Of a stretch of 64,000 nt of DNA, positions 3,124 through 37,971 are shown in pieces; position 1 is the first letter of the stretch; every line of letters starts with the position of its first letter. The DNA is taken from positions 186,001 to 250,000 of the forward strand of contig JAGKQI010000012.1 in assembly GCA_018806915.1 (NCBI GenBank), given 5' to 3'. The position numbers and the translations under genes are program-made. The notes beneath the pieces were generated by a model. It had not been told where the DNA came from. It made no database searches and saw only the letters and a list, made by a program, of their open reading frames with translations. Source of the stretch: Phytophthora colocasiae (Eukaryota > Oomycota > Peronosporomycetes > Peronosporales > Peronosporaceae).

Positions 3124-3176
3124 CTCTGGGGTAACACCATGCCCGGCGCGTTTCGGATCCCCATCCGACGGGCATA

Positions 3177-7422: not shown

Positions 7423-7495
7423 CTTGAATATAGACGCTTGACAGGAAACTTTCTCTTCTTGTACTCTCAAATGCGGTGATATCACGATTCCAAAA

Positions 7496-7513
7496 ATCCG
7501 GGCACGCGCACCA
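7496..7513 (-). promoter_or_regulatory. Primer-binding site, family A copy A
   Basis: On the minus strand the sequence TGGTGCGCGTGCCCGGAT lies two bases after the 5' LTR end (...GCGACA). It begins with TGG, as expected for pairing to a tRNA CCA tail. The same 18 bases occur in copy B and in the unrelated family B element. Confidence 0.75.
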
Positions 7514-7515
7514 GT

Positions 7516-9202
7516 TGTCGCGAAGTCGGTGAAACTTTGGTCGCGGAGCAGGGGGGCGTATAGTGAACCCTAGTTATACGACTACTGAAAAGGGGTTTTC
7601 AGAGCCGTACAACGGTAGGTTGGCGTGTGGTACCTTGCGGTATCCTCGTGGGTTCGTTGTCTTCGGAAATATGACCCTCGCCGGAGTCTGAGAATGTGTT
7701 GTGAAGAGAAGTTAGGGTTCCCTTGGAGTCTGGTGTCGGTATTCAGGAAATCTTCCCAGGAGCGTTCGGGAGTCGGAATCTCTGGAAACCAAGATGGTTT
7801 CCAGGAAGTCGGCGGTCGGAAAGAGGTTAATATACCAGAGAAAGTCTGAAATCGGTGTCTGAATATCACAAATCCAGAACCGATATACCTGACTTTCAGA
7901 GATAAACGACCAATATTCAGAGTTCAAAAATATACAAATATATACAGCCGTTCTTATTCTTTTTAGGCCCTTGAACGGTGGGCTAACACTCCAGGTCAAC
8001 TAGGGACTTACTACCAGACACCTGGTCTGTCTGGTATCCCTTTACGTTCGCGCACCCCCCTCTAGTATAGAGGGAAAATATAAACCAATACAATCGGCTA
8101 TATATAACAGTCTACCTTGCACTCTGAAAACGACTGTCTAGTTTCCAGAGCCTGTCCAAACGAGCAATATGAAATGGGCTACCGCTAGAGACAAAACAAA
8201 CGACCCAACTAGGATATGGAATAGGCGGGTCCTTTCAGGTCGCTACGTTACCTGATCTCCACCTAAGGGGATTGAATAGGCGAGAGATCACACGGCAGCG
8301 ATGCTTGGCGTGGCCTTGCAAACAGAAATACAACGACTTCTGGGTTACACGGCAAATTGAACTCTGTTTATCGTTTATCTTCCTCATAACTATCATATAT
8401 CTCTGGTAACTCTCTCCTTCTTGTCGTCTTTTGCGTCCTTTATGCAGTCAGTCTTCATATCTCAGGTACTCTTGGTCTTTGTATACATCTGGTAATTTGA
8501 CTTGGTCTCAGTATGCAGTCTGTGCAGCTGATCTCGATGGGTTGACAGGTAGAGACGTCATTACGGGGGATGTGCAGGTCAGTAATCACTTGAATGCGTG
8601 ACTTGAACTTGGGTTCACTTGGTTTCAGTATGGTCTTGAATCTTCGGTATTTTCAGGGTCTGGTATCCTGGTTTTCAGAGTCTGATATCACTTGGTTTTC
8701 AGAGTCTTAGTCGCTCAGAGTTAGAGATACCAGAGTCTTGAGTAAGAAACCAGAGTACGGAGCACTAATGCTTCAACGTACATGAAGATCTTGAGGGTTG
8801 CGCGGGTGCGCGGCGTCCGGCGCGCGATACTTGGTCTCTGCGGGTATATATTGTGAATCCTTGAACCATCCATCGTCGCGCTGGACGGTAACGGGATGAG
8901 GTCTCTCAGAGATACGTTCTTCTGAGAGACTTTCCGCCAGAACTTAGGCACTCATCGTCGGGGAAAGTCCGGTGACCAGACAGAGTGTAGTTGACCTTCA
9001 GAGTTGTGCACACTCTGAAGTACACTTCTGGTCCTTTGGGCCCCTTTACAGTCAGGCGAAGGTTTATCCACAATCTTCCACAGATGTCGCACGGGTGCGG
9101 CCGCGTCCCAAAGTCCCTTTCGCTTATAACCCATAGTATAACCAATCACGTCGTAACGTAATATCCACCTGTCGCTCGAAAATCGGAATTAACATCATGT
9201 CA
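7516..9202 (-). repeat. Family A LTR, central and complete (1,687 bp)
   Basis: On the plus strand it runs TGTCGCGAAG...ACATCATGTCA, with TG/CA ends. It serves both as 5' LTR of copy A and as 3' LTR of copy B. It is nearly identical to the partial LTR at 1-773 but differs by scattered substitutions from the LTR at 30332-31787, so copy A's LTR pair is younger than copy B's. No protein domain is recognised inside it; CAGAGT-type words are frequent. Confidence 0.85.
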
Positions 9203-19898: not shown

Positions 19899-22800
19899 AG
19901 CTGGAGAATGCCCCATGGAAGGAATTCTACAACCAGATCCGCAAGTGGTACGACCCGACCCGACATGCCGGATTGTTCCCGAGAAGGTGGAAAGATGTTA
20001 AACTAGGACGCTCGCCGGTTTGGAAACCGGTACGAGCCGAGCGTTCTGAGTACTGCATCTATGCATATGTGAACAAGAAATCGAGAGATCAAGATAGGGA
20101 GAATTCGGATCTGCGCGGTAATACATGTAAGTTGCATTCGTATACTGCTAAGATCGCGAGTCTTCCCCGGATCGATGAGTTCTCGCGATCTGGTGCGGAA
20201 GTGGCTTTGGATCTCAAGGAAGGAGAATCCAGGGGGTATTGGAAATACCACGCACCAGGAAAATGGTTCCGCCAAGCCAAGATCTCAGGCAAGATCAATC
20301 AGGAAAGAGCGATCTTGCTCCTGGACACTGGCGCCGAGGTATCCATCTTGGATACCACCTTTGCTCGTAAGGTTGGGTGCCACTTTGACACTAGTCAGAG
20401 ACAGGAGTGTGTTGGGATCGGCGATAATGTGTACACCACCGAGGGAAGAACGAGGATCAAGATCACACTTGCGGGATATTTGGTCTACTTTTTCGATATT
20501 TGGATCGGAGATCTATCCGGACAAGATGCGATCCTGGGTATGGATTTCATGATCCCGGCTGGGGTCCGGATGGATCTGGCAGAGGGATCGATGTGCTTAC
20601 CTAATGAAGTGGGGATACCACTTAGTGGTCGCAAAAGATTATACGGGGAGAAGGTGAGATCAGTGAAATTGGAGGAAGATCTACATATCCCAGTTGGGGG
20701 ATCTGAAGAGACCGCCTCGAGAGTGAAATTATCGGCGACGGAGAAATTATGGGTGACCAGAGGCGACCGATGGGTACCCACCGTGGTAAATGGACCCGGC
20801 CGAACTCGGTACTTAGTGATCACGAATTTGAGCGAGAAGATTTTACGACTGGATCACAGATTACATGTCGGGATGGTACTTGATCAAGAAAAAGTTCCTC
20901 GCTACCCCGGGTTTGTGTCGATCGGGTCCCGGCGTTACATGGAGTGGCAGAATCTAGCTCTAGAAGCGACAGTGGACGCAAGACCGGAACCTCAGGAAAC
21001 CGTAGAGACCCCCTTACCGTCGGTCGAACGGCCGACCTACGTTACGCCGCGATCTATACTCCGTCGAGGTGAGGCAATCAAGACCGATCCTGATCCTGCA
21101 CCAATATCGACATTGGAACCGCGATCACCGACCGATACGGCCGAAGTCAAGGTCGCATTCATCGACCCCCAACCGGATCCCACGGATACCCCACCGATCA
21201 CGATCAGTTCCGACAAGACCCCGAGTGGCGAAGCTGGGGGCGGTGAGACTGAGACGAATGAGAGCTTGCCAGATCAGGCCCCAGGTCGGACAGATCGGAC
21301 ATGCGAAGAAGAGATCGAGAAAAAAACAGAAAAACCAGATTTTCAAATCGAGATCAAACATGAATCCGACGCCGGTGCCGTCCCCATGGTTAAAGACACC
21401 CCGATCTTGACAGCCAAGGACGATAGGCTGCGTGATCAATCAACGGATGAACCGGATCCGACATCTCCTGAAGGGATCGAGAACGCTGATCAGACCCACT
21501 TACACGAAAGTGGCGATTTTTCGGCCGAAGATCTAGCCGATAATCTCGCAGTAGTACCGGAGATCCAGATTTCCACCACTGAAGAAGTCAGGATCGAAGA
21601 TCTGCAAGTAGGAAATCCGGGATCGGCTACCCCGGAGGAGATCGAGAAACTTCGACAGATTATTTGGAAGAGGCGACATCTCCTGATCGGAAAGGGAAAC
21701 GCACTTCCTCCAGCGGCCAAGGGTGTTATATGCGATATCGACGTGGGTGATGCAAAGCCGATCGCACAACGAGTCCGAAAGGTGGCGCCACAGTTCCGCG
21801 AGAAAGTATCGGATCTCATCAAAGGACTCCTAGCTGCCAAGATCATCCGGCCATCGACCTCGCCATGGGCATCGCCGATCGTGGTGATCATCAAGAAGAA
21901 CGGTGTAGACATCCGACTATGTATCGATTATCGGCTGGTGAACGGTCTCACGAGGCTGATGATCTACCCAATGCCTCTGATCAATGACCTGTTAGAAGAT
22001 CTTGACAAGGTTCTGTGGTACTGTTCATTAGACATGGCGAGTGGATTCTGGGTCGTATCAATGACCGATCGAGCTCGCGCGATCTCAGCTTTCATCACCC
22101 CGTTCGGCCTCTTCGAGTGGAATCGCATGCCGTTCGGGCTGAAGAACGCCCCTCAGATCTATCAACGTCTTGTGGACAACGCCCTATATGGATTTTTGAA
22201 GATCTCCCAGTCAGGGAATACGAAAGACTCTACAGATGTGTTTGAATCAGGGGTCCCGGAAGATCCTGGTCGCCCGTCGGTTCTAGGACGGAGATCTTAC
22301 ATCGACGATATCTTGATCACGGCTGGATCATGGGATCAAATGTGCGATCGGGTGGAAGACCTATTGGAGGCCTGTGATAAATGGAATCTCTCGATCAGTG
22401 TGGCGAAGAGCTTCTGGGGCATGGATAAGGTGGAATATCTCGGACACAAAGTGTCGATCGACGGATTGGAGGCAAACCCGAAAGACCTGAAGTCTCTGAC
22501 AGATCTGCCATTCCCTGGGTCGCTCCGATCCATGCAATCGTTCCTGGGAAGTTTGAATTACTATAGTCGGTTCATCGAGGATTACGCGATCTATGCATCG
22601 GTCCTATATGAACTACGTGAAGTGGAGTTCGCAGAACTGAAGAAGCGACCAGATCTTCGAAAGATCATGGATAGTACGGACCCGATCAATCGAGATCCCG
22701 TTGCGCTTAAGTCGAATCAGGATGGATCACCCGACACCTTGACTCAAAAGGGGAATAGTACGCCGGATCTTAACTTGGGGGCGACGCCTCCCCCCTGTTC

Positions 22801-22924
22801 AAGCAAGGTCGGAGCCAATCTGGCCCAAAGAGCTGGCGACGAAAGGTGGGGTAGAGCACACAGGGCGTTTACAGCCTTGAAAACCAAGATCGCGTCGACC
22901 CGATCCTCCGTCACTTCGACATGA
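19832..22924 (+). CDS. pol: Family B Pol, part 1: protease and reverse transcriptase
   Basis: Open for 1,030 codons. The first about 60 residues continue the Gag C-terminus in a shifted frame. Retropepsin site LLDTGAEVSIL at about residue 163 with the partner segment AILGMDFM; a long acidic linker (about 370-590); RT from about 620 with SPWASPIVVIIKKNGVDIRLC, LDMASGFW (about 733), MPFGLKNAP and the catalytic YIDD box (about 822), then the thumb and connection LGHKVSIDGLEANP and FLGSLNYYSRFI. All RT catalytic aspartates are present. The frame breaks at 22920, where coding moves to the next frame. It would process the polyprotein and copy element RNA in the capsid. Confidence 0.9.
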   Translation: MREERSSNRSLSVYLPWLWRSMKLENAPWKEFYNQIRKWYDPTRHAGLFPRRWKDVKLGRSPVWKPVRAERSEYCIYAYVNKKSRDQDRENSDLRGNTCKLHSYTAKIASLPRIDEFSRSGAEVALDLKEGESRGYWKYHAPGKWFRQAKISGKINQERAILLLDTGAEVSILDTTFARKVGCHFDTSQRQECVGIGDNVYTTEGRTRIKITLAGYLVYFFDIWIGDLSGQDAILGMDFMIPAGVRMDLAEGSMCLPNEVGIPLSGRKRLYGEKVRSVKLEEDLHIPVGGSEETASRVKLSATEKLWVTRGDRWVPTVVNGPGRTRYLVITNLSEKILRLDHRLHVGMVLDQEKVPRYPGFVSIGSRRYMEWQNLALEATVDARPEPQETVETPLPSVERPTYVTPRSILRRGEAIKTDPDPAPISTLEPRSPTDTAEVKVAFIDPQPDPTDTPPITISSDKTPSGEAGGGETETNESLPDQAPGRTDRTCEEEIEKKTEKPDFQIEIKHESDAGAVPMVKDTPILTAKDDRLRDQSTDEPDPTSPEGIENADQTHLHESGDFSAEDLADNLAVVPEIQISTTEEVRIEDLQVGNPGSATPEEIEKLRQIIWKRRHLLIGKGNALPPAAKGVICDIDVGDAKPIAQRVRKVAPQFREKVSDLIKGLLAAKIIRPSTSPWASPIVVIIKKNGVDIRLCIDYRLVNGLTRLMIYPMPLINDLLEDLDKVLWYCSLDMASGFWVVSMTDRARAISAFITPFGLFEWNRMPFGLKNAPQIYQRLVDNALYGFLKISQSGNTKDSTDVFESGVPEDPGRPSVLGRRSYIDDILITAGSWDQMCDRVEDLLEACDKWNLSISVAKSFWGMDKVEYLGHKVSIDGLEANPKDLKSLTDLPFPGSLRSMQSFLGSLNYYSRFIEDYAIYASVLYELREVEFAELKKRPDLRKIMDSTDPINRDPVALKSNQDGSPDTLTQKGNSTPDLNLGATPPPCSSKVGANLAQRAGDERWGRAHRAFTALKTKIASTRSSVTST

Positions 22925-24429
22925 CAAAGTTACCCGTGGTGATCGTGTATGCCAGTGACTGGGCGATCTCTGCCGCATTAATGCAGGAACACGACCAGAT
23001 CTACCACCCGGTCGCATTTGCCAGTCGAACCTTGAAGACGAACGAGTTAAACTATAATGTTGCCGAAAAGGAGGTGTTGGCTCTACTTCGGATCCTGGAT
23101 CTACACTACACCCTGTTGGTGGGACGTCGGATCAAGGTCCTAACCAGACACTCCACGCTTGCCTGGCTGTTCAAGTCTGCCGGCCTTCAAGGGCGTCTGG
23201 GACAATGGTCCGCTCTCCTGTCCCCATGGACACTCGAGATCACGAAGTGTACGAAGGGAGAGGATGAGATACTGGGGGCGATCGCAGCTAATATAACGCC
23301 TAGATCGGAGATCGACGAAGCCCTGATCGCGATCGCGCCACAGAAGGAACCAAGGCGTAAGATCCAGATGCCGATTCCTACCGTAGATCCAGGCGAGGAG
23401 CTATCGGTAGTAAGTTTCGACGGCTCGGCACGCGTGAAACGAGGAGGAGGCGCTTTCAGCGCGATCGTGTGGAGTTTGCCGGAGTGGAAAGTGATCAAAG
23501 CTAGATCAGACTATGCGGAGAGTCTTACTGTCAATGAAGCGGAATACCGTGGGCTCTTGCTAGGTCTTGGCATGATCGCACAGTTAGAACGCCGCCGTTT
23601 GGTCATTTGTGGCGATTCGAACCTAGTGATCCGACAAGTCCGGGGCGAGATCGACTGCAAGGCGCCAGGATTGACGTTACTGAAACAGAAAGTGCTGGAT
23701 CATTTGCGGAATTGGGGAGATCACGAGCTTGTCCATGTGAAGAGAGACTGGAATGGGAGCGCAGACAGCTTGGCGAGCGCCGCGCTGCAGCGAGGAAGCG
23801 GGATCGAGGTCCACGATGAAGCAGATCGGTGCGATCTGGTCACCCTGAATCGGCTCGATGAGGTGTTGACCCCTCGAGTTGAAGATCGAACGGTGCAAGT
23901 GTCGGCCGTAGCCACGGGCGCAGCCCGAGCACGACCCGATGCCGCCGTCCTACGAGAGGAACTGATCCGGGAGATGCGAGTGGATCGGATCAGGCGAGCC
24001 CAGGACGAGGAGGTCTGGATCGCCGGACTAAAGAAGTACCTGGCTGGGCAGATCGCGGATCTTACCCGAGCCGAGGCTGGATCCTACGCCAAGATCGCTT
24101 CCGAGTACGAGGTAGATGAACAGGATCTGTTGTTTTATTGCCCACCAGGGCCGAGATCAAGAGGTGATCGCGACCGTCTGATGAGACTCGTGGTTCCAGA
24201 AACGCTACAGCAGGATGTCCTCCACCACTACCATACGACTCTGGAAGGGGACATCAAGGGATCGGACGCACTTATCAGCGGATCCGAGATCATTTCCACT
24301 GGAGGGATTATATCAGGTGTGCAGCGATACGTAGGCGAGTGTGTAGACTGTGAGACTGGAAAGGGAGACCCACGATCCGAGGCGAGTCACCTGGGAATCT
24401 GCAAGCTACATACCCATTCCAGATCATAG
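22921..24429 (+). CDS. pol: Family B Pol, part 2: two RNase H domains and integrase zinc-binding region
   Basis: First RNase H (about residues 1-80) aligns with the usual Ty3/Gypsy domain, but the expected TDAS reads VYAS and TDH reads TRH, so two catalytic aspartates are replaced; the Glu of AEKEVLAL remains. A second, archaeal/RNase HI-like domain (about 155-300) has the full set: SFDGSA, NEAEYRGLLLGL, CGDSNLVIRQV and SADSLAS. The integrase HHCC region follows near 24215-24365, with VGECVDC visible. Between 24250 and 24320 the conserved HxGxxRT-like pattern is readable only in another frame, implying two compensating one-base indels at a GGGG run and further on. The frame ends just before the integrase core. 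Confidence 0.85.
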   Translation: MTKLPVVIVYASDWAISAALMQEHDQIYHPVAFASRTLKTNELNYNVAEKEVLALLRILDLHYTLLVGRRIKVLTRHSTLAWLFKSAGLQGRLGQWSALLSPWTLEITKCTKGEDEILGAIAANITPRSEIDEALIAIAPQKEPRRKIQMPIPTVDPGEELSVVSFDGSARVKRGGGAFSAIVWSLPEWKVIKARSDYAESLTVNEAEYRGLLLGLGMIAQLERRRLVICGDSNLVIRQVRGEIDCKAPGLTLLKQKVLDHLRNWGDHELVHVKRDWNGSADSLASAALQRGSGIEVHDEADRCDLVTLNRLDEVLTPRVEDRTVQVSAVATGAARARPDAAVLREELIREMRVDRIRRAQDEEVWIAGLKKYLAGQIADLTRAEAGSYAKIASEYEVDEQDLLFYCPPGPRSRGDRDRLMRLVVPETLQQDVLHHYHTTLEGDIKGSDALISGSEIISTGGIISGVQRYVGECVDCETGKGDPRSEASHLGICKLHTHSRS

Positions 24430-24431
24430 CG

Positions 24432-25593
24432 ATGGATCACATACCCTCTCTGCCCAGATCCAACAAAGGCAATACTGAACTGCTGATCTGGGTGGATCTG
24501 TTCACGGGATATGTGATCGCAAAGGCTAGTTCCTCCCGATCGGCCCAGACCGTCGCGGAATCTTATGAAGAATGCGTGTTCCGCAGATTTGGCGCTAGCG
24601 AGATGATCAGGCACGATCGAGAGCCGGGCTTCATGTCCGACTTCTTCAGATCGTTTAATAGGATCCTGGGGCAACGACAACGGGCGACGATGGCCTACCG
24701 ACCACAGGCCAATGGGACTGCCGGAACGGATGGTGCAAACGGCCACTAGGCCAATCAAGATGTATGTTCAAGATCTCGATCAAAAGGACTGGGATGAATA
24801 TGCGGAGAGATTGACTTTCGCTATTAACACGGCTCACGATCGGGTCCGGGGAGATACCCCTCACTATTTGGTACACGGATGGGACCCGAGATCGACGTTG
24901 GAAGCGACGATCCCGATCGGGTCGACCAGGCGCCATGACCGCGATCCAAGACGATGGAGATATCGCGTTCAGAGATACTACCAGCAGTCGAGAGAACAGG
25001 TCAACGCTAGGCTGCGAGAGGCGATTGCGGACCGAGCTGATCGACACAATGAGGACGTCGATCCGCATCAGATCGAAGCTGGATCACGTGTTTGGCTATA
25101 CCTAGATCGTGTGAAGGAAGGGTATGCACGTAAACTCGCTCACCTCTGGCACGGCCCGTTCCGTGTTGCAGAGAAGCTCAATGAATTCACGATCAAGCTG
25201 GAAATCGCGGGATCTGATTACCATATCTTCCCGGTGGTCCATGTTTCTAAGCTAAAGCTGGTACGGAATTTCCCGGATCGACCGCGGATCGAGTTGACGG
25301 TGGATGAAGCAGATCGGCTCGATTTCGATGAGATCCTCCTTCCGGAAGACAGTTGGGTCCCGGATCTGGATACCGATGAGTACGAAGTTGAACGGATCTC
25401 GGACATGCGAAGTGGGAAACGAACTCGCTACGGCCGGATCTATCGTGAATTTCTGGTGCACTGGGTCGGTTATGATGAGCCAACGTGGGTCGACGAAGCT
25501 GATCTTAACTGTGGGGCCATACTGAGCGCGTTCCTACGTGACCACGCTAATCGGAACCGATTCGGCGTGATGCAGTCACATGAAGAGGTGTAA
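24432..25593 (+). CDS. pol: Family B Pol, part 3: integrase core and chromodomain (one frameshift)
   Basis: The first frame (24432-24749) holds the integrase core: D of AMDHIPSLP and D of IRHDREPGF. An extra G near 24722 (GCCGGAACGG) shifts coding to the frame ending 25593, which supplies the Glu of ERMVQT, completing D-D-E. Then come the helical C-terminal part, a GPF/Y-like module (HLWHGPFRVAEKL, VVHVSKLKLV), an acidic linker and a chromodomain (about 25380-25540: YEVERISDM, REFLVHWVGYDEPTWVDE). Chromodomains in this position bind modified chromatin and steer integration; the aromatic residues Y, W and Y/W are present. Confidence 0.88.
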
Positions 25594-28837: not shown

Positions 28838-30331
28838 TGTGGTGAAGCGGACGAAAATTTTTCCCGGAGAGGCGATGTCAGCCACGAACCCGAATAGAGT
28901 CGGAACGAGCGACAGGGGGGACCGGTGATCGCCAGATCTGGGTCGAATCAGACGGAGGTACGATGGGTCCCGCCGGGAACAGGCAATGGAGACACCGGCG
29001 AAGAAGCAGGTGGAGCGGTGTTCGTGGGTGATCCGAATCCTGCCGTGGTGTTCGTAGGTGATCCGAATCCTGCCGGAGGAAGAATGGGGAAATCAAGGAT
29101 GTTCTCGCGCGATCAACGATGACGGGTCCCCAAGCGAGCATGATCAGCTTACCCTGGCGCCCCGAAGCCTCTAACAGCACGATCCAACTTCCCCGGGCGG
29201 CGACGAAGCGAGATCACGCAAGATCGCGCAATGATCCTCTCCCGTATAAGTACGAGATCAGCTCCGGATCAAGGTCAACCCCAGGCGCGACGCAGACTCT
29301 TCTTGTGGCCTGATCCGGATTCTAAGAAGGATCACCAAGCGGGATCAGGCAGTGATCAAGTCCCGATTAAGTACGAGATCAAGCTCCGGTTAAGTGCGAG
29401 ATCAAGTCCCGATTAAGTACGAGATCAAGCTCCGGTTAAGTGCGAGATCAAGCTTCGGTTAAGTGCGAGATCAAGCTTCGGTTAAGTGCGAGATCAAGCT
29501 TCGGTTAAGTGCGAGATCAAGCTTCGGTTAAGTGCGAGATCAAGCTTCGGTTAAGTACGAGATCAAGCTTCGGTTAAGTACGGAATCGGCTCAAGATCAG
29601 GGTTAGGGGAACCAAGCTAGTGATCAGCTATGTAGCCAGTGTCATGTGATCGTAGGATAGTAAATCAGGATGGGATTAGTAGGCATAGGAATAACCATAA
29701 ACAGAATCGAATTTGCCCTGAACCACTCAAGTGTCTTCGCTACGTCTGGAACCGGGAACTACATTGGCCCTACAAGCGTCAGGAAGGTAAGGATACGTGA
29801 CCTAGTATAGCGGTTAAGTCTGGATAATATATTGGCCAGCTTTGCCCTATCTAGTGAACTATCCTTTAAGTGCATACATCGGATCGGAAGGAATTGGTTG
29901 TTTAGCCTAAAGATCCCGTCGAATCTCGCCCCCTCAAGACCCCCGCTATCGGAAGCGGAAAACAACGGAAAGGAAGGGACCGAATCCCGAACATTGGACT
30001 ATTGGAAGACCTGGATCAAGAACCAGGCACCCGGATCAAGGCTCGAGAACTCGCCTACGACCGGGATCAAGTACCCCGAGGTGGAGTGAAGAACTTCCAC
30101 GCCGCCTCAAACCCCTGCGTCACCCAAGCCCAAGACCTTCTTCTCGTCCCAAGACATCTTCAGAAGTTACCTGGAAGAGCGTAACCCGCCTACCGACGGG
30201 TACACAAGGTGAACACTACACGCAACAAGATCACGGATCATCGGGGGACCCCCTCCGTTAGTCGGTGTCTGGGCGCAAGTGGCGATCGCGATCGGCCTCA
30301 ACCAGATTTTGGTCAGATCCGCTCCACCACA
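28838..30331 (+). repeat. Family B 3' LTR (1,494 bp)
   Basis: Same as the 5' LTR apart from run-length changes: a G6 for a G7 near 28914, AA for AAA near 29369, two extra C near 29931 and one extra G near 29977. Includes the 23-bp tandem array (about 29350-29580). Short frames inside the LTR appear in both copies and carry no domain. Confidence 0.92.
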
Positions 30332-31787
30332 AGATCCTTCCAGGAGCGTTCGGGAGTCGGAATCTCTGGAAACCAAAGTGTTTTCCAGGAAGTCGGCGGT
30401 CGAAAAGAGGTTAATATACCAGAGAAAAGTCGGAATTCGGTGTCTGAATATCACAAATCCAGAACCGAGATGCCTGACTTTCAGAGATAAACAACCAATA
30501 TACAGAGTTCGGAAATATACAAATATATACAGCCGTTCTTATTCTTTCTAGGCCCTTGAACGGTGGGCTAACACTCCAGGTCAACTAGGGACTTGCTACC
30601 AGACACCTGGTCTGTCTGGTATCCCTTTACGTTCGCGCACCACCCTCTAGTATAGAGGGAAAATATAAACCAATACAATCGGCTATATATAACAGTCTAC
30701 CTTGCACTCTGAAAACGACTGTCTAGTTTCCAGAGCCTGTCCAAACGAGCAATATGAAATGGGCTACCGCTAGAGACAAAACAAACGACCCAACTAGGAT
30801 ATGGAATAGGCGGGTCCTTTCAGGTCGCTACGTTACCTGATCTCCGCCTAAGGGGATTGAATAGGCGAGAGATCACACGGCAGCGATGCTTGGCGTGGCC
30901 TTGCAAACAGAAATACAACGACTTCTGGGTTACACGGCAAATTGAACTCTGTTTATCGTTTATCTTCCTCATAACTATCATATATATATGGTAACTCCCT
31001 CCTTCTTGTCGTCTTTTGCGTCCTTTATGCAGTCAGTCTTCATATCTCAGGTACTCTTGGTCTTTGTATACATCTGGTACTTTGACTTGGTCTCAGTATG
31101 CAGTCTGTGCAGCCGATCTCGATGGGTTGACAGGTAGAGACGTCATTACGGGGGATGTGCAGGTCAGTAATCACTTGAATGCGTGACTTGAACTTGGGTT
31201 CACTTGGTTTCAGTATGGTCTTGGATCTTCGGTGGTTTCAGAGTCTGGTATCCTGGTTTTCAGAGTCTGATATCACTTGCTTTTCAGAGTCTTAGTCACT
31301 CAGAGTTAGAGATACCAGAGTCTTGAGTACGAAACCAGAGTACGGAGCACCAATGCTACAACGTACATGGAGATCTTGAGGGTTGCGCGGGTGCGCGGCG
31401 TCCGGCGCGCGATACTTGGTCTCTGCGGGTATACATTGTGAATCCTTGAACCATCCATCGTCGCGCTGGACGGTAACGGGATGAGGTCTCTCAGAGATAC
31501 GTTCTTCTGAGAGACTTTCCGCCAGAACTTAGGCACTCATCGTCGGGGAAAGTCCGGTGACCAGACAGAGTGTAGTTGACCTTCAGAGTTGTGCACACTC
31601 TGAAGTACACTTCTGGTCCTTTGGGCCCCTTTACAGTCAGGCGAAGGTTTATCCACAATCTTCCACAGATGTCGCACGGGTGCGGCCGCGTCCCAAAGTC
31701 CCTTTCGCTTATAACCCATAGTATAACCAATCACATCGTAACGTAATATCCACCTGTCGCTCGAAAATCGGAATTAACATCATGTCA
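30332..31787 (-). repeat. Family A LTR 3, right fragment
   Basis: Starts with the second AGAT (30332-30335) and continues the LTR sequence interrupted at 16184. It ends ...CATGTCA at 31787, directly abutting family C sequence. It shows several substitutions relative to the central LTR. Confidence 0.9.
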
Positions 31788-33594
31788 CACGTACTTGTGC
31801 AAGTACGTGGACAACTATGCGGGCAATATTCGCCCGTTGTCACAGCTTCTTAAGAAAGAAGCTGAGTGGATTTGGACGACCGAGTGCGAGGAGGCATTCG
31901 GTGCAGTCAAGCAGGGCTTGACTGAAGCGCCGATCTTGGCCGCCGTGGCGGACCAAGATCGTCCATTCCACGTAGTGTGCGATGCATCCGACTTTGCAAT
32001 CGGATATGCATTGATGCAACACGATCACGAAGGGCGTGATCGTGTAGTCTACTATCAATCGCGTCAGCTGAAGCCAGCTGAGCGTAACTATCCCGTACAT
32101 GACAAGGAGCTCCTTGCCATGAAGTATGCACTCGCAAAGTTCCGAGTGTATCTAGTTGGGAGTAGACCGTTCGTGGTCTATACAGACCACGCATCATTGC
32201 GTACGGCGATTAAGTCGCCGCACATCTCGCAACGTATGGCGAGATGGTTGTCCTTCTTCGCGGAGTACAACTTCCGGGTAGAGTACAAACCCGAAAGACT
32301 CAATGTAGTGGCCAACGCGTTATCGCGGAGACGGTCGACGCCAACGCAGTTGGCGTCGTGAGGACAAGTGTGCCGTCGTCAACGTTGATTGACGACGTGA
32401 AGAACGCGTATGCAAGGGATGCAGACGCGAAGGGGCTGCTGGAGTTCTTTACAGGACCTTCCGACGTGGCACGTCGGAAGCTAACCCCTCATCTTCGAGC
32501 TCGTGTACACCGCTATCGTGTACACGAAGGCCTACTGTTGTACAGTGCAGTAGACGACAATCGCATTGTCGTTCCGAATGATCATGACCTCCAGTTGATG
32601 ATCATGTTCGAGTATCACGATGCCCCCACGGCAGGGCATCCGGGTCGTGAGAAGACATACACTCTTCTCACGCGTGACTTCTACTGGCACCACCAGTACA
32701 AGTGGGTGCGCAAGTACGTACGTGCTTGCGAGGTTTGTCAACGCGTGAAGCCTGCGCGGTTCTCGCAGGCTCCTCTTCAGTCACGTCAGAGTGTTGGCAG
32801 TCCATGTCCATTGGACTTTGACTTCGGTCTTCCGCCTGACAGCAAGCGGAGGACGGACATCGTTGTCTTTGTGGACAGCTTCAGCAAGATGGTTCATATT
32901 GCTGCCGTCCCGGCTTCTGTTACAGCCGCGCAGACTGCGCGACTGTTTGTTGACATGGTGTTCAAACACCATGGCATGCCGCTCGACATTGTGTCGGACC
33001 GTGATCCACGCTTCACAGCGCGGTTCTGGCAAGAAGTGTTTACACTTCTTGGTTCACAGTTATCAATGTCGACTGCGGATCATCCGCAGACGGACGGACA
33101 GACCGAACGTGTCAACCGTGTATTGGGTGACACGTTGAAGAGCTATGCTCACTCGTTCCCGCATTGGAGCGAGTGCTTGCCGATGGCAGAGTTTGCCATC
33201 AACAACTCGGTGCATGCCTCGACAGGGCATACACCGTTCTACGTGAACGCCATGAGGCATCCACGATTGCCGAGCATGCTCGGCGGGGTAGCTTCCTCCT
33301 TAAGTGGGGGAGGATCTACGGTTGCGTCCGAACAACCGCAGAATGCAACTGATAGCAGCACACTATCAGCTGCGGTGACGCGTGCGACGTCTCGTTCGAG
33401 CAGGAACGAGCGCGCGATGTCTGTGCCAGGCACAGACGCGAGGAGATGATAGCGAGCAGGCAGGGCCTGCTGCTGACAAAGGCGACAAGCTGATAGGAGT
33501 CAGCTCGAGTGCGCTAGACTTTGTCCAGCGAAGACAAGCCGTCATACGGTTTGTCCAGAATGCTATCGCAGCTTCTGTCGATCGACGAAGCTGA
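31788..33594 (+). pseudogene. pol: Family C Pol: RNase H and integrase, frameshifted
   Basis: 31795-32361 encodes the RT connection and a canonical Ty3/Gypsy RNase H (VVCDASDFAIGYAL, HDKELLAM, VVYTDHASL), so unlike family B its catalytic aspartates are kept. The frame shifts near 32340 and continues to 33449 as integrase: an HHCC zinc region (H of EYHDAPTAGH at about 32615 to CEVC at about 32730), D in LDFDFG (about 32812), D in VSDRDPRF (about 32995) and E in QTERVNR (about 33100). After a Ser/Thr-rich insertion another frame carries the helical segment up to 33594. It is truncated at the left by the family A insertion. Confidence 0.88.
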
Positions 33595-34337
33595 ACGCTG
33601 ATACTGTTGGTAGAGGCAACACAAATGAATTCGAAAAGGGTTCATTAGTTTTGTTAGCTACACAAAACCTACCTAGACATGCAGTGTCTGACTTTGGAGC
33701 AAGCAAGCTTGCTCCAAGATTCGATGGGCCGTTCAAAGTACTTGAACGGCATGGTAACTGCGTACCGGCTGGACATACCGTCAGCATGAGGTTCCACCCG
33801 ACCTTCTACGTCGGGCGGTTGAAGCCGTACGTGCAGCACGGACTACCTAGGGTTGGTAGTCCGACTGAGGAGTGCGAGAGGCATGGAAGGCCTACTGGAG
33901 ACCGTCGACACGGTCGATCAACCTGTTCACTCTAGTCCCAAGACCGGACGAGAGGTTCGAGGCAGTCTGAGCTGCCTCGCAGACCTCAGCACGGAGGACA
34001 CGAACCTCCTGCTTCAGAGCCGCTATCTCAGCGCTCTGTGTCTGCTCCAGCGCAGCAACTCGATCGTGCAGGGCACGATCGTCACGGTCATAGCGGTGAC
34101 GGGAGTGTTCTCGCCCCCCCCCCCCCGCCGCCGTTGCGCGACGCGCGTGGAGCGATCCGCTGGATTGTTGAGCGGATCGTGGCTCATAAGAGAACGAACT
34201 CTCAAGGGGTTCGTTTTCGTATTCGTTGGAGAGAATTTCCCCTCCATCGAGATACATGGGAGCCGCGGAACGTCCTGATGGAGGGCGTACCGGAAATAGT
34301 GATGCCGTACGAAGCCCACCATAACTTGCAGGGGTAA
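33595..34337 (+). pseudogene. pol: Family C integrase C-terminus and chromodomain
   Basis: 33651-33935 holds the GPF/Y-like module (LAPRFDGPFKVLERHG, MRFHPTFYVGRLKPYV). A different frame at 34038-34337 has a Pro run and then a chromodomain (IRWIVERIVAHKRT, FRIRWREFPLHRDTWEP). A C homopolymer (about 34117-34127) lies before the chromodomain and is a likely site of length error. This region is also covered by the antisense frame ending at 33892. Confidence 0.8.
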
Positions 34338-35347
34338 GCCACAGCACTCGGAGCTTCGCGTGGCACAATACGACCACGGAGCTCCTTGAAGAGATCGGGT
34401 ACACGGACGACCGTGTACCCCAGGAGATCACTTTCGGTGAGACGTGTTGCCAAGGGTTGGCAACACGGACAGGGTGTGCCAAACGGCGCATGGGATCCCC
34501 GCTTCGATGGACTGATCATGGAGGCGTTCACACTTACCACGTGTAGTGTAAGTGTAGTAGCGATTGCGAGCCGCAGCAACGCGCTCGCGATATGCCTTCG
34601 GGTCTTTGTTGAAGTTTTCAACAAAGGCGTTCCACGACTGACACAGTGCCTGCCACTCTGGCACTTTGCTCTTGCGCGAAGTCTTCTTCGCTGCATAGTA
34701 TCGGAGCTCATGGAAGAGCCCGATATATTAGTCGCGTCTTTGAGTCTCGGACTCAAAGACAACCTCAGCGGCGACGTCGTCGTCGTTGATACTGTTGCAT
34801 GCGTACAACAGTATCGGGTTCGGTGGTGAACTAGCACCGAACCGATCATGGATCTCTGCCTCAGTAGGCATCCATGGTGTGCGCACTGGCGGATCAGTGC
34901 GCGGGGCGGTGAGCGCCCTCGACATGCGGGACGCTTCGTCATCACTGCGCGGACGCTTCGAGGCCTCAACACGAGGTCGTCGAGATCCCACGGGTGGGTC
35001 TGACGTGTCTTCGGACGAAGAAACGGAAGCGGGAGCCTTGGCGTCAAGCTCTCCCTCCTCGACATCGTCGTCATCATAGTCAAGGATGTCTTCGTAGTCC
35101 TCTCCAAAGCGTTCTTTGAGAGGGACAGCAGGATTCTTAATCTCTGCTAGAGAAGAAGACTTCTTCTTCTTCTCATGCTTCTCCTTGTGGAGAGCATGGT
35201 ACTCGGTGACAGATAGCTTCTCTGTCGAACTGCTGGAAGCAGCAGTGCTAGTGGGCACTGCTGAGGTTGTTGTTCCTGCTGCAGAGGCAGCAGGGGAGGC
35301 TTGCGCGTTCGCAAAAGCGGACGGAGACGTGGGCGTTGGCGAGTCCA
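33892..35347 (-). pseudogene. Family C antisense ORF: Ser/acidic and coiled-coil protein (broken)
   Basis: ATG 35347 begins MDSPTPTSPSAF, followed by Ala/Ser/Thr-rich, Lys-rich and acidic (YDDDDVEEGELD) sequence. An in-frame TAA at 34728-34730 interrupts an otherwise continuous frame, which goes on with a globular-looking part (WNAFVENFNKDPKAYRERV). After a frameshift near 34500 it ends with a clear coiled coil (RVAALEQTQSAEIAALKQEV) and a stop at 33892. It occupies the same place as the antisense ORF of family B, between integrase and 3' LTR, with the same ingredients but no visible sequence identity. Its 3' end overlaps the chromodomain on the other strand. Confidence 0.65.
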
Positions 35348-35440
35348 TTGCGAAATGAACTCGGATTTCTCTCGGGAACTTGACGGTCTTGTCAAGTTCT
35401 GTTGATTGACGTATCGGGTACCGATACGTCAAATCTTAAC

Positions 35441-35450
35441 GGGGGGATGG
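35441..35450 (+). promoter_or_regulatory. Polypurine tract, family C
   Basis: GGGGGGATGG, immediately before the LTR start and right after the 12-bp-arm hairpin at 35406-35432. Confidence 0.6.
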
Positions 35451-35899
35451 TGTAACGGGGTTACACGTACAAGTGGTAGTACCACTTGTAACTCTAACAG
35501 TTAGGATAACTGTTAGAGATTGGAAATGGGCCTCAGACCTTGGTGTGCTGTACACACCAATGGATACATGGGCGAACCACATTATTGGGTGGCTCGTGTG
35601 CATTTGTGCATATTATTGGTAGAATTCTACCAATCACTGAGCAGAGTTTCTGCCAACCACACGTTGGCAGACCCTTTAGAATAGATAACAAACAGTTTTA
35701 GGAGGTCCATAATTGGTTTATGCCAAATTCAATAACAGTTCTCATTTTACGGTATTTTGCAGTTTAATTTAGTTATATTTGATTTAATTATACTTATTTA
35801 AATAAGTATACTTAAATTAAGTCTATTCTAATTGCACGCTTCCTCATACACGTAAGCGCACGTGTACGCCACCTAATAGGTCTAAGCAGACCCATTACA
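35451..35899 (+). repeat. Family C 3' LTR (449 bp)
   Basis: Starts TGTAACGGG and ends CCCATTACA, a 9-bp terminal inverted repeat with one mismatch. It carries several perfect hairpins (35468-35490, 35492-35518, 35540-35560, 35615-35634, 35649-35671, 35789-35810, 35847-35866). The right flank begins ATCTT; the partner duplication would be left of the window. Confidence 0.82.
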
Positions 35900-35916: not shown

Positions 35917-37895
35917 ATGGAGATCGTCCATTTGCTGAACGCAGACGACGACGGCGAGGACTGGGCGTTCGAGCCCTCTGACACAGATGAGGAGGAAGAA
36001 GAAGGAGCAGACGTCGTGGCTGCAGATGATGAGGGGGGGGCGTCAGGACGGAGGCACGAAACGAGACACATAAGCCTTTGCCCACTGGCAATGCATACAT
36101 ATATGGCATTATGCGCGATAGTGGACTGCATATTGTGCGTGAGAGGGAAGTAAGAGCTTCTTACAAGGAGCGGGGGGAATTGGGTCTCTTTTCTCTCTTC
36201 TTCACACGAGACTTTCGTGACTCGTTGCGGACATGGACAAATCAAATTCTCAAAGAAAAAGGAAAACCGGAGGCTACAGTGTATGAACTGGACGCTTACT
36301 TGGGTTTGGAGATTGCAATGAGCTTCAACCCTGTCACAGAAATGAAAGAGCTCTGGTCCCAAAAGGTCTTTATGGACCAATCTGATTTTTGCAGCGACGA
36401 TGGCTAAAAATCGGTTCGAGACCATCCGAGCCGCCTTTCAAATCCACGCTCCTGATAGTTTTCCTGCTGAGCGGTGTGATCAAGATCCGCTGTGGCACAG
36501 TCGCCGCCTTATGACCCAGATCCAGAAGAAGTTCGCAGCGATTGCTGTACCTGTAGGTGCTGTTAGTCTCGATGAGAACACCGTACGCACGAAGGCGCGG
36601 TCGTCAGCAAGGACGTACCTACCGTCAAAGCCTGTCAAGTATGGGGCGCGATTCTACGCGGTTGTGGGCTGGAAGAGTTTGTTTGCTTACTCTATCTGGG
36701 ATAATGGCTCCGGGAATCGGTATGTATGCGTATTCCCCGCTCTGCGAACAGCACTTTTCAGGACGCTGGAGCGCTCGGATGACGCGATCAAACGGAAAGA
36801 TGCTAGTGCTTTATGGGTTGCTATGAGTGGCCACCTTACAAAGATCCACTCGGCGCCTAACTGTCGCCGCCTTCTCGTGTGTGATAATTTTTACACACGA
36901 CACAACCTGGCGAAGACGCTGCTAGCTTTCACAGATGGGGAAATGCGTATGCTGGGCACTGTAGGTATACCGTTGCAAGGAAAGTGGAATGCTATTGGCT
37001 GGATGCAGCTAAAGCGCGCGTAGCTGCAGCAGAGCGTGGAAGCTGGGAGCTCATCGCAGCAATAGATGTACCGGTCGGATGGGAGAAGCTTCAAGAGAAG
37101 CATAACCGCGAGCAGCAGAAGCTTCCAGCGCACTTGCGGACGCCATACAAGCCGCCAATGTCGATTGCTGAGAATGCGGGCTATGTCGTCTATCGGGACA
37201 AAAACACTGTGGTATTCTATACTAATGACCTCGCTGGTACAATGGCGGAACCCATGTTGTCGGGCACATCTACGGAGGCCGTCCGACTTTGTCGTGGTCT
37301 TGCTCCTCTTCGGCGCTGGACAGGCGACCAAGTAATGCACCGCAAAACCTTCCAAGCACCGGCTACGGTAGTAGAATACAACATCTTTATGAATGGTGTG
37401 GATAGAGTCGACCAGCTGAGAAGTACCAACCCGATCCGCCGCAAGGAGAAGCGACTGTCAATGAGCTTGCTGACATGGGATCTGGATCTTTCCTTGATCA
37501 ATGCCTTCGCGCTATTCAAAAAGGTAGCTGGGTCAATAGTAGAACGTGTCACTCTACGTGAATTCAAACAGCGTGTTGTTGAAAAACTTACCGCCGTTCA
37601 GCGTACTCGGCGGGAGAAGGAACGCTGCCGTCGTCAGCCTCAACCTAACGAGCCGCTAGAAGAATTAGTGAGGGCAGATCCAAGTTTACATCCAATTACA
37701 CCAAACTCAAAGAAGCATTCAAGCGGTAAGCTGGCTTGCTACCTGTGCACGCTGCGCGGCTTCTCGAAAAAAGCGGTCTATGGCTGCACTGGCTGTCAAC
37801 GGGGATTCCACGTAGCCTGCTTCACCGCCTTCCACTACCGCGACGCCCCCACATCTAACTCACTTGGGGTCCGCTCCGCGCTAGACGCTGTCTGA
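35917..37895 (+). pseudogene. piggyBac-like transposase 1 (three frameshifts)
   Basis: ATG 35917 starts an acidic N-terminus (DTDEEEEEG). Coding then moves through frames at about 36080, 36400 and 37000; the last two fit single-base losses at a T run and a GG run. Catalytic aspartates are visible: ISLDENTV-like SLDENTVRTK (about 36570), LLVCDNFYTRHN (about 36880) and NGVDRVDQLRS (about 37395). A C-terminal Cys/His cluster (CYLCTLRGF, CTGCQRGFHVACF) matches the zinc-binding tail of piggyBac transposases. It would cut and join at TTAA if repaired; as read it is inactive. It precedes a small convergent ORF. Confidence 0.85.
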
Positions 37896-37971
37896 GCTAA
37901 GGCGCCGGGCGATGGGCTTGTGCACACACGTAAAGAAGAACAGTACCATCACGCATCTTAGTGAGCTAGAG

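What the first reader, a model, noticed from the sequence alone, without database searches (positions are those of the whole stretch)
31788..35899. A retroelement written almost entirely in short perfect hairpins
Seen directly: from 31788 to 35899 perfect inverted repeats follow each other every 30-80 bp, through RNase H, integrase, chromodomain, antisense ORF, purine tract and LTR. More than 40 have arms of 8-12 bp, for example 32336-32358 (CGACGCCAAC/GTTGGCGTCG), 33728-33750 (GCCGTTCAA/TTGAACGGC), 34443-34467 (CGTGTTGCCAA/TTGGCAACACG), 35406-35432 and 35492-35518. About 0.7 are expected by chance. The pattern starts and stops at the element edges and ignores codon frame. It may be selected RNA structure (packaging, protection from or exposure to small-RNA machinery) or the trace of a copying process that converts near-palindromes to palindromes, such as template switching by the element's own RT. 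I know of no described element with this property.
Basis: partly seen in the sequence, partly recalled or inferred. Interest (0 to 1): 0.96.

Follow-up and report, generated by a model that had tools for sequence, protein, structure and literature searches.

The report
Retrotransposon built of two-strand hairpins
A mobile genetic element in what is most likely a Phytophthora (water-mould) genome carries a perfect mini-hairpin about every 70 bases through nearly all of its genes and ends; the stems are kept as the element spreads, and they likely shield both RNA strands from the host's RNA silencing.

Summary
The window holds 43 perfect hairpins (arm 8 or more, loop 10 or less) in 31788-35899, against 0.73 per shuffle. 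This copy is a 5'-truncated member of a Ty3/gypsy family (8.3 kb, about 460-bp LTRs). A full-length copy carries 118 hairpins across LTRs, gag, pol and an antisense gene; 20 fetched loci average 13.5/kb inside the element and 0.46/kb outside. Four sister loci show 1-4/kb, eight outgroup loci 0-0.4/kb.

Variation shared between copies is halved in stems, also at pol third codon positions; single-copy mutations are not depleted. Loops are not conserved. In the focal family AT-rich stems are longer, which evens out stem energy. Paralogous hairpins covary. This supports current selection on hairpin pairing.

Plus-strand RNA folding alone is unlikely: at the observed energies it predicts about 85% G.T among G.T plus A.C mismatches; 30% (focal) and 50% (sisters) were seen. 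Arm rewriting by template switching alone fits poorly.

Best inferred mechanism: short hairpins keep sense and antisense transcripts folded, limiting double-stranded RNA and small-RNA targeting. Untested: no RNA data. Eight literature searches found no described element like it.

The parts
31788..35899 (+). 5'-truncated copy of the hairpin-rich Ty3/gypsy element (equals positions 4117-8312 of the full-length copy L011)
   Evidence: blastn to L011, 94.2% identity over 4212 columns; 43 perfect hairpins inside
31789..34275 (+). remnant of pol: RNase H, integrase, Tf2-1-like SH3 domain; frame broken in this copy
   Evidence: tblastn with pol of L011 gives several pieces in different frames; domains by Pfam on L011
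34044..35414 (-). remnant of the antisense gene between pol and the 3' LTR; broken in this copy
   Evidence: tblastn, 70% identity to the 493-aa antisense ORF of L011; shared polymorphism by antisense codon position 4:8:32 in the family; 555 homologues, of the 120 listed 117 named to Phytophthora and 3 without a species name
35440..35450 (+). purine tract before the 3' LTR, lying between hairpins
   Evidence: read from sequence; hairpin map of the same place in L011
35451..35899 (+). 3' LTR, begins TGTA and ends TACA; itself carries hairpins
   Evidence: blastn with LTR, 95.3% over 464 columns starting at 35448; LTR ends and 5-bp duplications in other copies
32336..32358 (.). example hairpin in pol, arm 10, loop 3
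33728..33750 (.). example hairpin in pol, arm 9, loop 5
34443..34467 (.). example hairpin in the antisense-gene region, arm 11, loop 3
35406..35432 (.). example hairpin before the purine tract, arm 12, loop 3
35492..35518 (.). example hairpin inside the 3' LTR, arm 12, loop 3

Best explanation
The element is a probably recently active Ty3/gypsy retrotransposon of a probable Phytophthora whose whole length, LTRs, gag, pol and an antisense gene alike, is packed with short perfect hairpins whose stems are conserved between spreading copies, and these hairpins likely keep both its sense and its antisense transcripts folded so that they would escape double-stranded-RNA formation and small-RNA targeting by the host. 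Shown here: the hairpins, their whole-element extent, their restriction to one clade among the loci examined, conservation of stems but not loops in shared variation (third codon positions included), the trade of arm length against GC in the focal family, covariation among paralogous hairpins, and lack of preference for G.T over A.C in fixed stems. Inferred: that the constraint is natural selection on folded single strands; that it acts on both strands, which fits an element with a conserved antisense gene; and that the benefit is avoidance of RNA silencing. With arms of 8-13 pairs the hairpins would be too short to be Dicer substrates themselves (established knowledge, recalled), and so could hide the sequence without feeding the pathway.
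For: Real and whole-element: 43 vs 0.73 in the window; 118 vs 1.6 in full-length L011; pol 76 vs 2.2 under synonymous shuffling; 2172 hairpins in 160,790 element bases vs 18 in 39,210 other bases over 20 loci. Lineage trait: RT-IN density 12.5/kb focal, 1.1-4.0/kb in four sister loci, 0-0.4/kb in eight outgroup loci of about five families; the five-row clade is split off with 100/100 support on a midpoint-rooted tree. Constraint on pairing: shared (>=3 of 22 copies) polymorphism 32/2397 stem columns vs 2.69% shifted, p=2e-4; pol third positions 11/504, p=0.001; outside pol p=0.004; pol positions 1-2 p=0.012; singletons p=0.22; loops and inner columns 41/719 shared, outside 150/5183. Second data set: sister loci L038/L041 differ at 36/316 stem vs 454/2820 other columns (Fisher p=0.03), with 4 distinct paired changes that keep Watson-Crick pairing. 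Stability target: AT-rich stems longer, rho -0.27, p=9e-4; stem energy SD 2.9 vs 3.6 permuted, 0/2000; outward extension falls from 0.78 at arm 7 to 0.21 at arm 11. Covariation in 12 paralogous TCNGGGA hairpins: 27 double-change cells vs 11.5 shuffled, 0/500. Both strands: simulated plus-only selection gives 85% G.T among G.T+A.C at the observed folding energy (75-96% over all strengths tried), both-strand selection 49-58%; observed 15:35 focal, 15:15 sisters. Antisense gene under protein constraint: 4:8:32, homologues across the genus. In P. infestans, small RNAs map along Gypsy elements in both orientations (PMC3522703, passages).
Against: No RNA, small-RNA or probing data were available, so folding in cells, antisense transcription and silencing are untested. 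The energy trade-off is absent in sister L030 (38 stems, p about 0.5). Wobble data conflict: shared mismatches at pairs that are mostly Watson-Crick are 8 G.T to 0 A.C at 3 or more copies (p=0.008) but 4 to 8 at two copies, and fixed ones favour A.C 36 to 14 (34 to 14 counting the LTR once, p=0.006), which is not the even split of a clean two-strand model and could hint at the minus strand. Pairs that cannot physically close still pair more often than chance (0.41-0.45 at loops 3-4, stems of 7, vs a baseline of about 0.27), which pure hairpin selection does not predict. Focal stem pairs are paired above control also in outgroups (0.29-0.33 vs 0.23-0.24; sisters 0.39-0.44), so some near-palindromes may be old or favoured by the protein. 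In the covariation test two of five measures did not exceed shuffles (pairs changed on both sides 49/500, further pair types 405/500). Stem cover at arm >=6 is only 37% of bases with one uncovered run of 137, so shielding would be incomplete. Sister L037 is barely above chance (3 vs 0.38, shuffle maximum 3), yet 31 places of what is presumably its family were matched, so a close relative spreads nearly without the trait (only one member was scanned).
Confidence: 0.4

Rival explanations
1. The hairpins are selected for the element's own replication rather than defence: compaction and packaging of the RNA genome, and control of reverse transcription, with folding needed in both the plus-strand RNA and the minus-strand cDNA.
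For: Same stem conservation, energy levelling and covariation. A sub-family of 12 hairpins in the protease-RT linker has an invariant TC.GGGA apex with changing stems, as expected for repeated protein-binding hairpins. RNA genome and minus cDNA are both single strands, so no G.T preference is expected. The purine tract and the stretch after the 5' LTR lie between hairpins, though the gaps are no longer than others.
Against: Only 12 sites share the apex, and not all of these form long stems, against 118 hairpins in all. Sister locus L037 is nearly without hairpins while its presumed family is numerous. Nothing here separates this from defence avoidance.
Confidence: 0.27
2. A copying process makes and maintains them: during reverse transcription the nascent strand folds back at near-palindromes and one arm is rewritten from the other (quasi-palindrome correction), without selection for the hairpin.
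For: No G.T preference in fixed stems; excess pairing even in positions that cannot close; amino-acid sequences of the clade are themselves enriched in palindrome potential (0.21-0.33 per kb vs 0.10-0.14 in seven of eight outgroups); double changes keeping pairing occur. In small comparisons between sisters the one-arm dispersion is sometimes high (for instance L037 vs L030 4.2 with 3 hairpins, L041 vs L038 2.3 with 7, L038 vs L031 2.3 with 10), and two hairpins in L038/L041 differ mainly in one arm. The mechanism is documented for DNA polymerase in yeast (PMC8604942, abstract) and proposed for Nematomorpha (PMC6649704, Discussion).
Against: In the large focal comparisons (76 hairpins) changes that complete pairs are spread evenly over both arms. 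Unbiased rewriting should turn lost single changes into double changes and so give no depletion of variable columns (my reasoning); a two-fold depletion with only 3 shared double changes was seen. More stable stems should grow longer under fold-back priming; the reverse holds in the focal family.
Confidence: 0.2
3. Ordinary plus-strand RNA structure over the genome, as in RNA viruses with genome-scale ordered RNA structure.
For: Folding energy z about -4 to -5.5 on the plus strand per 200 bases in the focal family and in sister L030; in the LTR the plus strand folds better than the minus. Shared G.T variants 8 to 0 at 3 or more copies.
Against: Outside the LTR, minus-strand energies are about equal. 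Plus-only selection would give about 85% G.T among G.T+A.C at the observed energy; observed 30% and 50%.
Confidence: 0.08
4. Artefact of composition, coding or one odd copy.
For: None found; the sister loci are GC-rich, but shuffles of each keep that.
Against: Dinucleotide and synonymous shuffles, flanks, outgroups and 20 loci all speak against it.
Confidence: 0.01

Closest known systems
Ty3/gypsy LTR retrotransposons of oomycetes
   Same: LTRs, 5-bp target duplications, gag with zinc knuckle, protease-RT-RNase H-integrase order, Tf2-1-like SH3 domain; pol relatives in Phytophthora and Globisporangium
   Different: A perfect hairpin about every 70 bases over the whole element; eight outgroup gypsy loci in the same genome are at background
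Retand-type plant LTR retrotransposons with antisense ORFs between pol and 3' LTR (PMC11963269, passages)
   Same: Conserved antisense gene between pol and the 3' LTR
   Different: No TRP28 (PF04195) match in the antisense protein; that paper's main text has no occurrence of 'hairpin' or 'inverted repeat'
Coding palindromes in Nematomorpha mitochondrial genes (PMC6649704, abstract and Discussion)
   Same: Perfect inverted repeats embedded in functional coding sequence, phases partly set by the code
   Different: Those reach 284 bp and lie scattered in mitochondrial genes; here arms are 8-13, dense, in coding and non-coding parts of a retroelement, with a length ceiling
Genome-scale ordered RNA structure of RNA viruses (recalled)
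   Same: Genome-wide excess of folding energy
   Different: Here Watson-Crick on both strands, no G.U preference in fixed stems, perfect local stems
Quasi-palindrome correction by template switching (PMC8604942, abstract)
   Same: Arms made perfectly complementary inside coding sequence
   Different: No one-sided multi-base signature in the focal family

Membership tests
Ty3/gypsy LTR retrotransposon | LTRs with TG..CA ends and 5-bp target duplication | tested here: met
   TGTA..TACA; clear 5-bp duplications beside 6 of 13 copies with two LTRs (L009, L014, L015, L020, L021, L027); in the other 7 the blast ends were imprecise or no duplication shows
Ty3/gypsy LTR retrotransposon | order protease, RT, RNase H, integrase; gag with CCHC knuckle | tested here: met
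   Pfam on L011
Chromovirus (chromodomain integrase) | C-terminal chromodomain PF00385 | tested here: not met
   Only SH3_Tf2-1 PF24626 in L011 at E<=0.1; some homologues carry PF00385
Retand-type element | antisense ORF between pol and 3' LTR | tested here: met
Retand-type element | TRP28 domain in antisense ORF | tested here: not met
   no such Pfam match at E<=1 among 25 proteins scanned
Genome-scale ordered RNA structure | excess folding energy along the genome | tested here: met
   mean z -4.3 to -5.5 plus, -3.3 to -6.5 minus over the parts of L011
Genome-scale ordered RNA structure | structure specific to the genomic RNA strand, G.U tolerated | tested here: not met
   fixed stems; the shared-variant count points the other way at 3 or more copies
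Template-switch (quasi-palindrome) product | clustered changes confined to one arm | tested here: not met
   focal family: dispersion 1.0-1.5 vs control means 1.1-1.3; small sister comparisons scatter from 0.1 to 4.2; two candidate cases in L038/L041
Element avoiding RNA silencing by structure | reduced siRNA yield or targeting relative to hairpin-poor families | not testable with these tools
   no small-RNA data

The most novel reading that the evidence does not exclude
A whole mobile genome has been rewritten, genes included, into an array of minimal two-strand hairpins held at a set stability, so that neither its sense nor its antisense transcript offers a pairable single strand: a structural, sequence-independent counter-defence against RNA silencing, tied to a conserved antisense gene that forces the element to be read from both strands.
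Probability: 0.35. Interest if true: 0.95.

Novelty: new variant of a known kind. Interest (0 to 1): 0.85.

Why it matters
If the reading holds, a selfish element has solved a coding problem at genome scale, proteins on both strands plus about 118 stems of matched stability, under a nucleic-acid constraint that can be seen in its own polymorphism. It gives a natural test system: related loci in one genome range from about 12/kb to near background, so packaging, small-RNA load and spread can be compared across a gradient. It also bears on an open question, whether mobile elements can hide from RNA silencing by folding instead of by encoding a suppressor, and warns that dense perfect palindromes in coding DNA can be selected and need not be a copying scar.

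Tried and rejected
Tried and rejected or unresolved. (1) Chance or composition: rejected by shuffles, flanks and outgroups. (2) Plus-strand RNA folding only: disfavoured by mismatch types and two simulations; the first simulation reached stronger folding than observed (-21 to -35 against -14.7 kcal/mol), so it was repeated at matched strength, which lowered the plus-only prediction from about 95% to about 85% G.T. The slightly more negative minus-strand z-scores I put down to composition and did not use. (3) One-arm rewriting: dispersion test negative in the focal family, noisy in small sister comparisons. (4) Left/right arm bias in protein conservation as a polarity signal: none. (5) Same hairpin positions between families: weak, 3 of 12 L030, 1 of 3 L037, 3 of 12 L038 and 0 of 7 L041 hairpins coincide with focal ones, p 0.07-1. 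(6) Relatives outside this genome as DNA: three IMG/VR scans and two scans of prokaryote genomes gave none. (7) Fold of the antisense protein: model confidence low (mean pLDDT 54; blocks of residues 231-370 at 58-92), no PDB match at E<=0.001. (8) Literature for a described element: searches in the open PMC library (listings seen) gave none; papers outside it were not searched. One search was for Phytophthora small RNAs.

Rows dropped: loci L001-L008 duplicate the window copy and L009-L015 and were not counted again; columns with fewer than 15 of 22 rows were left out of polymorphism rates (fewer than 10 and in the base rates); hairpins with an indel in the other row were left out (1 case); for the antisense protein, the ORF and 24 of the 120 listed homologues went into the alignment. 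The two LTRs of a copy are both counted. The 'outward' values for L038+L041 and for the rest of the window are wrong because runs of N were counted as pairing; they were not used. The outgroup loci are not independent: L029, L031 and L034 are near-identical, as are L040 and L042.
Full report
OBSERVATION. A scan for perfect inverted repeats with arms of at least 8 and loops of at most 10 finds 43 non-overlapping hairpins in 31788-35899. Dinucleotide shuffles of the same stretch give 0.73 on average and at most 4 in 100. The other 59,000 bases of the window have 22.

WHAT THE THING IS. The window lies in a 92.5-Mb eukaryotic genome held without a name. Protein relatives of the element are named to oomycetes: 80-84% for the antisense protein in P. 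citrophthora, 83-88% for pol in P. ramorum, P. sojae and P. cinnamomi over 76-91% of the query part, so the host is most likely a Phytophthora. The DNA search scored 40 places and all 40 matched at 92-100%; the protein search gave 69 stretches in 68 places. I fetched 20 regions of 10 kb. Full-length copies are about 8.3 kb with LTRs of about 460 bases and TGTA..TACA ends; 5-bp target duplications are clear beside 6 of 13 copies with two LTRs; LTR pairs are 95.9-100% identical, three of 13 at 100%, which suggests recent activity. Gag has a capsid domain and a zinc knuckle; pol has protease, RT, RNase H, integrase and a Tf2-1-like SH3 domain, no chromodomain. Between pol and the 3' LTR lies an antisense gene. 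The window copy is cut at the 5' side (it starts at element position 4117) and its frames are broken.

THE PATTERN IS A PROPERTY OF THE WHOLE ELEMENT. Bins of 500 bases show dense hairpins from LTR to LTR and few outside, except where another copy of the family adjoins. Over the 20 loci: 2172 hairpins in 160,790 element bases (13.5/kb), 18 in 39,210 other bases (0.46/kb). In L011: 118 observed, 1.6 by shuffle; pol 76 vs 2.2 by synonymous shuffle; gag 9 vs 0.2; antisense ORF 24 vs 0.7. Density is 7-21/kb in every part, LTRs 12.7-12.8. Half of the element lies in hairpins with arms of 6 or more, loops included.

THE PATTERN IS A LINEAGE TRAIT. In the same genome, pol relatives at 60-62% identity over RT-IN (L030, L037, L038, L041) form one clade with the focal family (100/100 on a midpoint-rooted tree with some long branches) and have 20, 3, 12 and 7 hairpins in 4.6, 3.2, 3.2 and 3.2 kb, shuffle means 0.4-0.8. 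Eight outgroup gypsy loci of about five families and one further RT locus (L029, L031-L036, L040, L042) have 0-2 with shuffle means 0.3-0.8. L037 is marginal. L039, fetched as a possible relative, proved to be a copy of the focal family (31 hairpins in 3.2 kb).

FORM OF THE HAIRPINS. In L011 arms are 8-13; loops lie mostly within 0-10, with a thin scatter beyond. The chance that a stem extends outward by one more pair rises to 0.77-0.78 at 6-7 pairs and falls to 0.21 at 11; spans stop near 27-28 bases. In stems with a feasible loop, arm length falls as GC of the inner pairs rises (rho -0.27, p=9e-4), and the SD of stem energy is 2.9 kcal/mol against 3.6 when arm lengths are permuted (0 of 2000). 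The window copy agrees (p=0.005 with minimal loop 3, 0.03 with 4, RNA parameters); L030 with 38 stems does not (p about 0.5). I read this as a stability target in the focal family.

SELECTION ON PAIRING. I laid 22 copies on L011 coordinates. Taking as stem every column that pairs in any copy with at least 4 bases inside, variants shared by 3 or more copies occur at 32 of 2397 stem columns (1.34%); circular shifts of the same annotation give 2.69% (p=2e-4). Pol third positions: 11 of 504 vs 4.5% (p=0.001). Outside pol p=0.004; pol positions 1-2 p=0.012. Variants seen in one copy only, taken as mostly post-insertion decay, are not depleted (226 of 2397, p=0.22). Loop and inner columns have 41 of 719 shared, non-hairpin columns 150 of 5183. 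The definition admits any column that pairs in a single copy, which biases against finding depletion; part of the loop excess may come from the same definition. Stratified by 250-base bins the odds ratio is 0.37 overall and 0.35 at pol third positions. Two sister loci at 84.4% identity repeat the sign: 36 of 316 stem columns differ vs 454 of 2820 (Fisher p=0.03), with four distinct paired changes that keep Watson-Crick pairing.

COVARIATION. In the protease-RT linker 12 sites share the apex TC.GGGA. Their alignment shows 27 double-change cells vs 11.5 in shuffles (0/500) and 75.8% paired cells vs 63.0 (0/500); sliding the partners destroys it, and no G.U occurs in alignment columns 5-10. The number of pairs changed on both sides (9 vs 6.8, 49/500) and of further pair types (16 vs 17.6, 405/500) do not stand out. 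Between families, focal stem pairs are paired in 39-44% of cells in sisters and 29-33% in four outgroup loci, shifted controls 23-25%.

WHICH STRAND. In near-perfect stems G.T is no commoner than A.C: 15 vs 35 in L011, 15 vs 15 in sisters, 26 vs 25 by chance in outgroups; by family majority 14 vs 36. Simulated 35-base strings under plus-strand selection give 85% G.T among the two at energies like the observed (-12.9 to -16.4 against -14.7 kcal/mol), 75-96% over all strengths; two-strand selection gives 49-58%. So plus-strand RNA folding alone is unlikely. The A.C lean in the focal family (p=0.006) may point to the minus strand (antisense RNA or cDNA). Against this, variants shared by 3 or more copies were 8 G.T to 0 A.C, and those in two copies 4 to 8. 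I leave the strand balance open.

ANTISENSE GENE. Shared variants in the spacer beyond pol fall 4:8:32 on antisense codon positions 1:2:3, a clear sign of protein constraint on the opposite strand. The protein search gave 555 homologues at 1e-3 among the 7991 candidates scored; of the 120 listed, 117 carry a Phytophthora name and 3 none. In the own genome 87 of 87 scored places matched at 86-100%. No Pfam domain; the predicted fold is poor outside a helical core and matches nothing. An antisense gene implies an antisense transcript (inferred), hence a risk of double-stranded RNA.

COPYING PROCESS. Fold-back template switching would also give Watson-Crick arms on both strands. But in the focal family the changes that complete pairs are spread over both arms (dispersion 1.0-1.5, control means 1.1-1.3), double changes that keep pairing are few (3 shared by 3 or more copies, 1 by two, 7 in single copies), and unbiased rewriting should not reduce the number of variable stem columns (my reasoning). 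Small comparisons between sisters scatter widely (0.1 to 4.2 with 3-10 hairpins), and two hairpins in L038/L041 do differ mainly in one arm. I keep it as a contributor or origin, not as the upkeep.

CODING COST. In RT-IN, synonymous choice can place far fewer hairpins in the phase that pairs codon positions 1-2 and 3-3 (26 of 261 feasible sites in L011; 3 of 22 observed there); over all of pol, with its freer linker, that phase holds 22 of 76. The clade's proteins give 0.21-0.33 hairpins per kb when back-translated at random, seven of eight outgroups 0.10-0.14 and L032 0.22, so amino acids seem to have been bent as well.

MECHANISM. Committed view: local hairpins too short for Dicer (recalled knowledge) keep both transcripts folded, so sense and antisense anneal poorly and small RNAs find little open target. 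In P. infestans, small RNAs of 21 and 25/26 bases derive mostly from LTR retrotransposons and map along Gypsy elements in both orientations (PMC3522703, passages read), so the pressure exists in the genus. Each functional step is inferred. Packaging and reverse-transcription roles fit nearly as well.

KNOWN OR NEW. The element is an ordinary Ty3/gypsy by gene order. Antisense ORFs in this place are known from plant Retand elements (PMC11963269, passages). Perfect palindromes inside coding sequence are known from Nematomorpha mitochondria (PMC6649704, abstract and Discussion), longer and attributed tentatively to conversion. I found no description of a retroelement with this property in eight searches of the open PMC library (listings seen).

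Noticed in passing
L011 3309-4158 (element positions 2082-2931): Array of 12 sites with invariant TC.GGGA apex and covarying stems in the protease-RT linker; four of them lie in a 72-bp tandem repeat of 2.1 copies. A candidate set of protein-binding hairpins.
   Followed up: partly
L011 7610-9088, minus strand: Antisense gene under protein-level constraint, with homologues across Phytophthora, no known domain.
   Followed up: partly
element positions 2251-3250, 6751-7000, 7501-7750 in several copies (L018, L026, L028, L016, L010, L015 and others): Blocks of 6-12% divergence inside copies that are mostly 0-5% apart elsewhere, as if copies had recombined with an older subfamily.
   Followed up: partly
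L030 versus L037: Two loci 71% identical in RT-IN differ several-fold in hairpin number (20 in 4.6 kb vs 3 in 3.2 kb), so the trait may be gained or lost fast.
   Followed up: no
window 30597-30621, 31486-31515, 31581-31605: Three further perfect hairpins just left of the element, not part of the aligned family.
   Followed up: no
window 29500-29580: Short tandem copies of a unit like CGGTTAAGTGCGAGATCAAGCTT, seen by eye.
   Followed up: no
window 36200-37900: Broken transposase-like ORFs next to the 3' LTR that look like a piggyBac-type element by eye (recalled, not tested).
   Followed up: no
window 21710-24716: A second, distant gypsy pol (26-34% identity) without the hairpin pattern.
   Followed up: no
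22 aligned copies: Single-copy G>A changes outside stems are somewhat commoner per base than C>T (0.090 vs 0.075), the reverse inside stems (0.059 vs 0.075).
   Followed up: no
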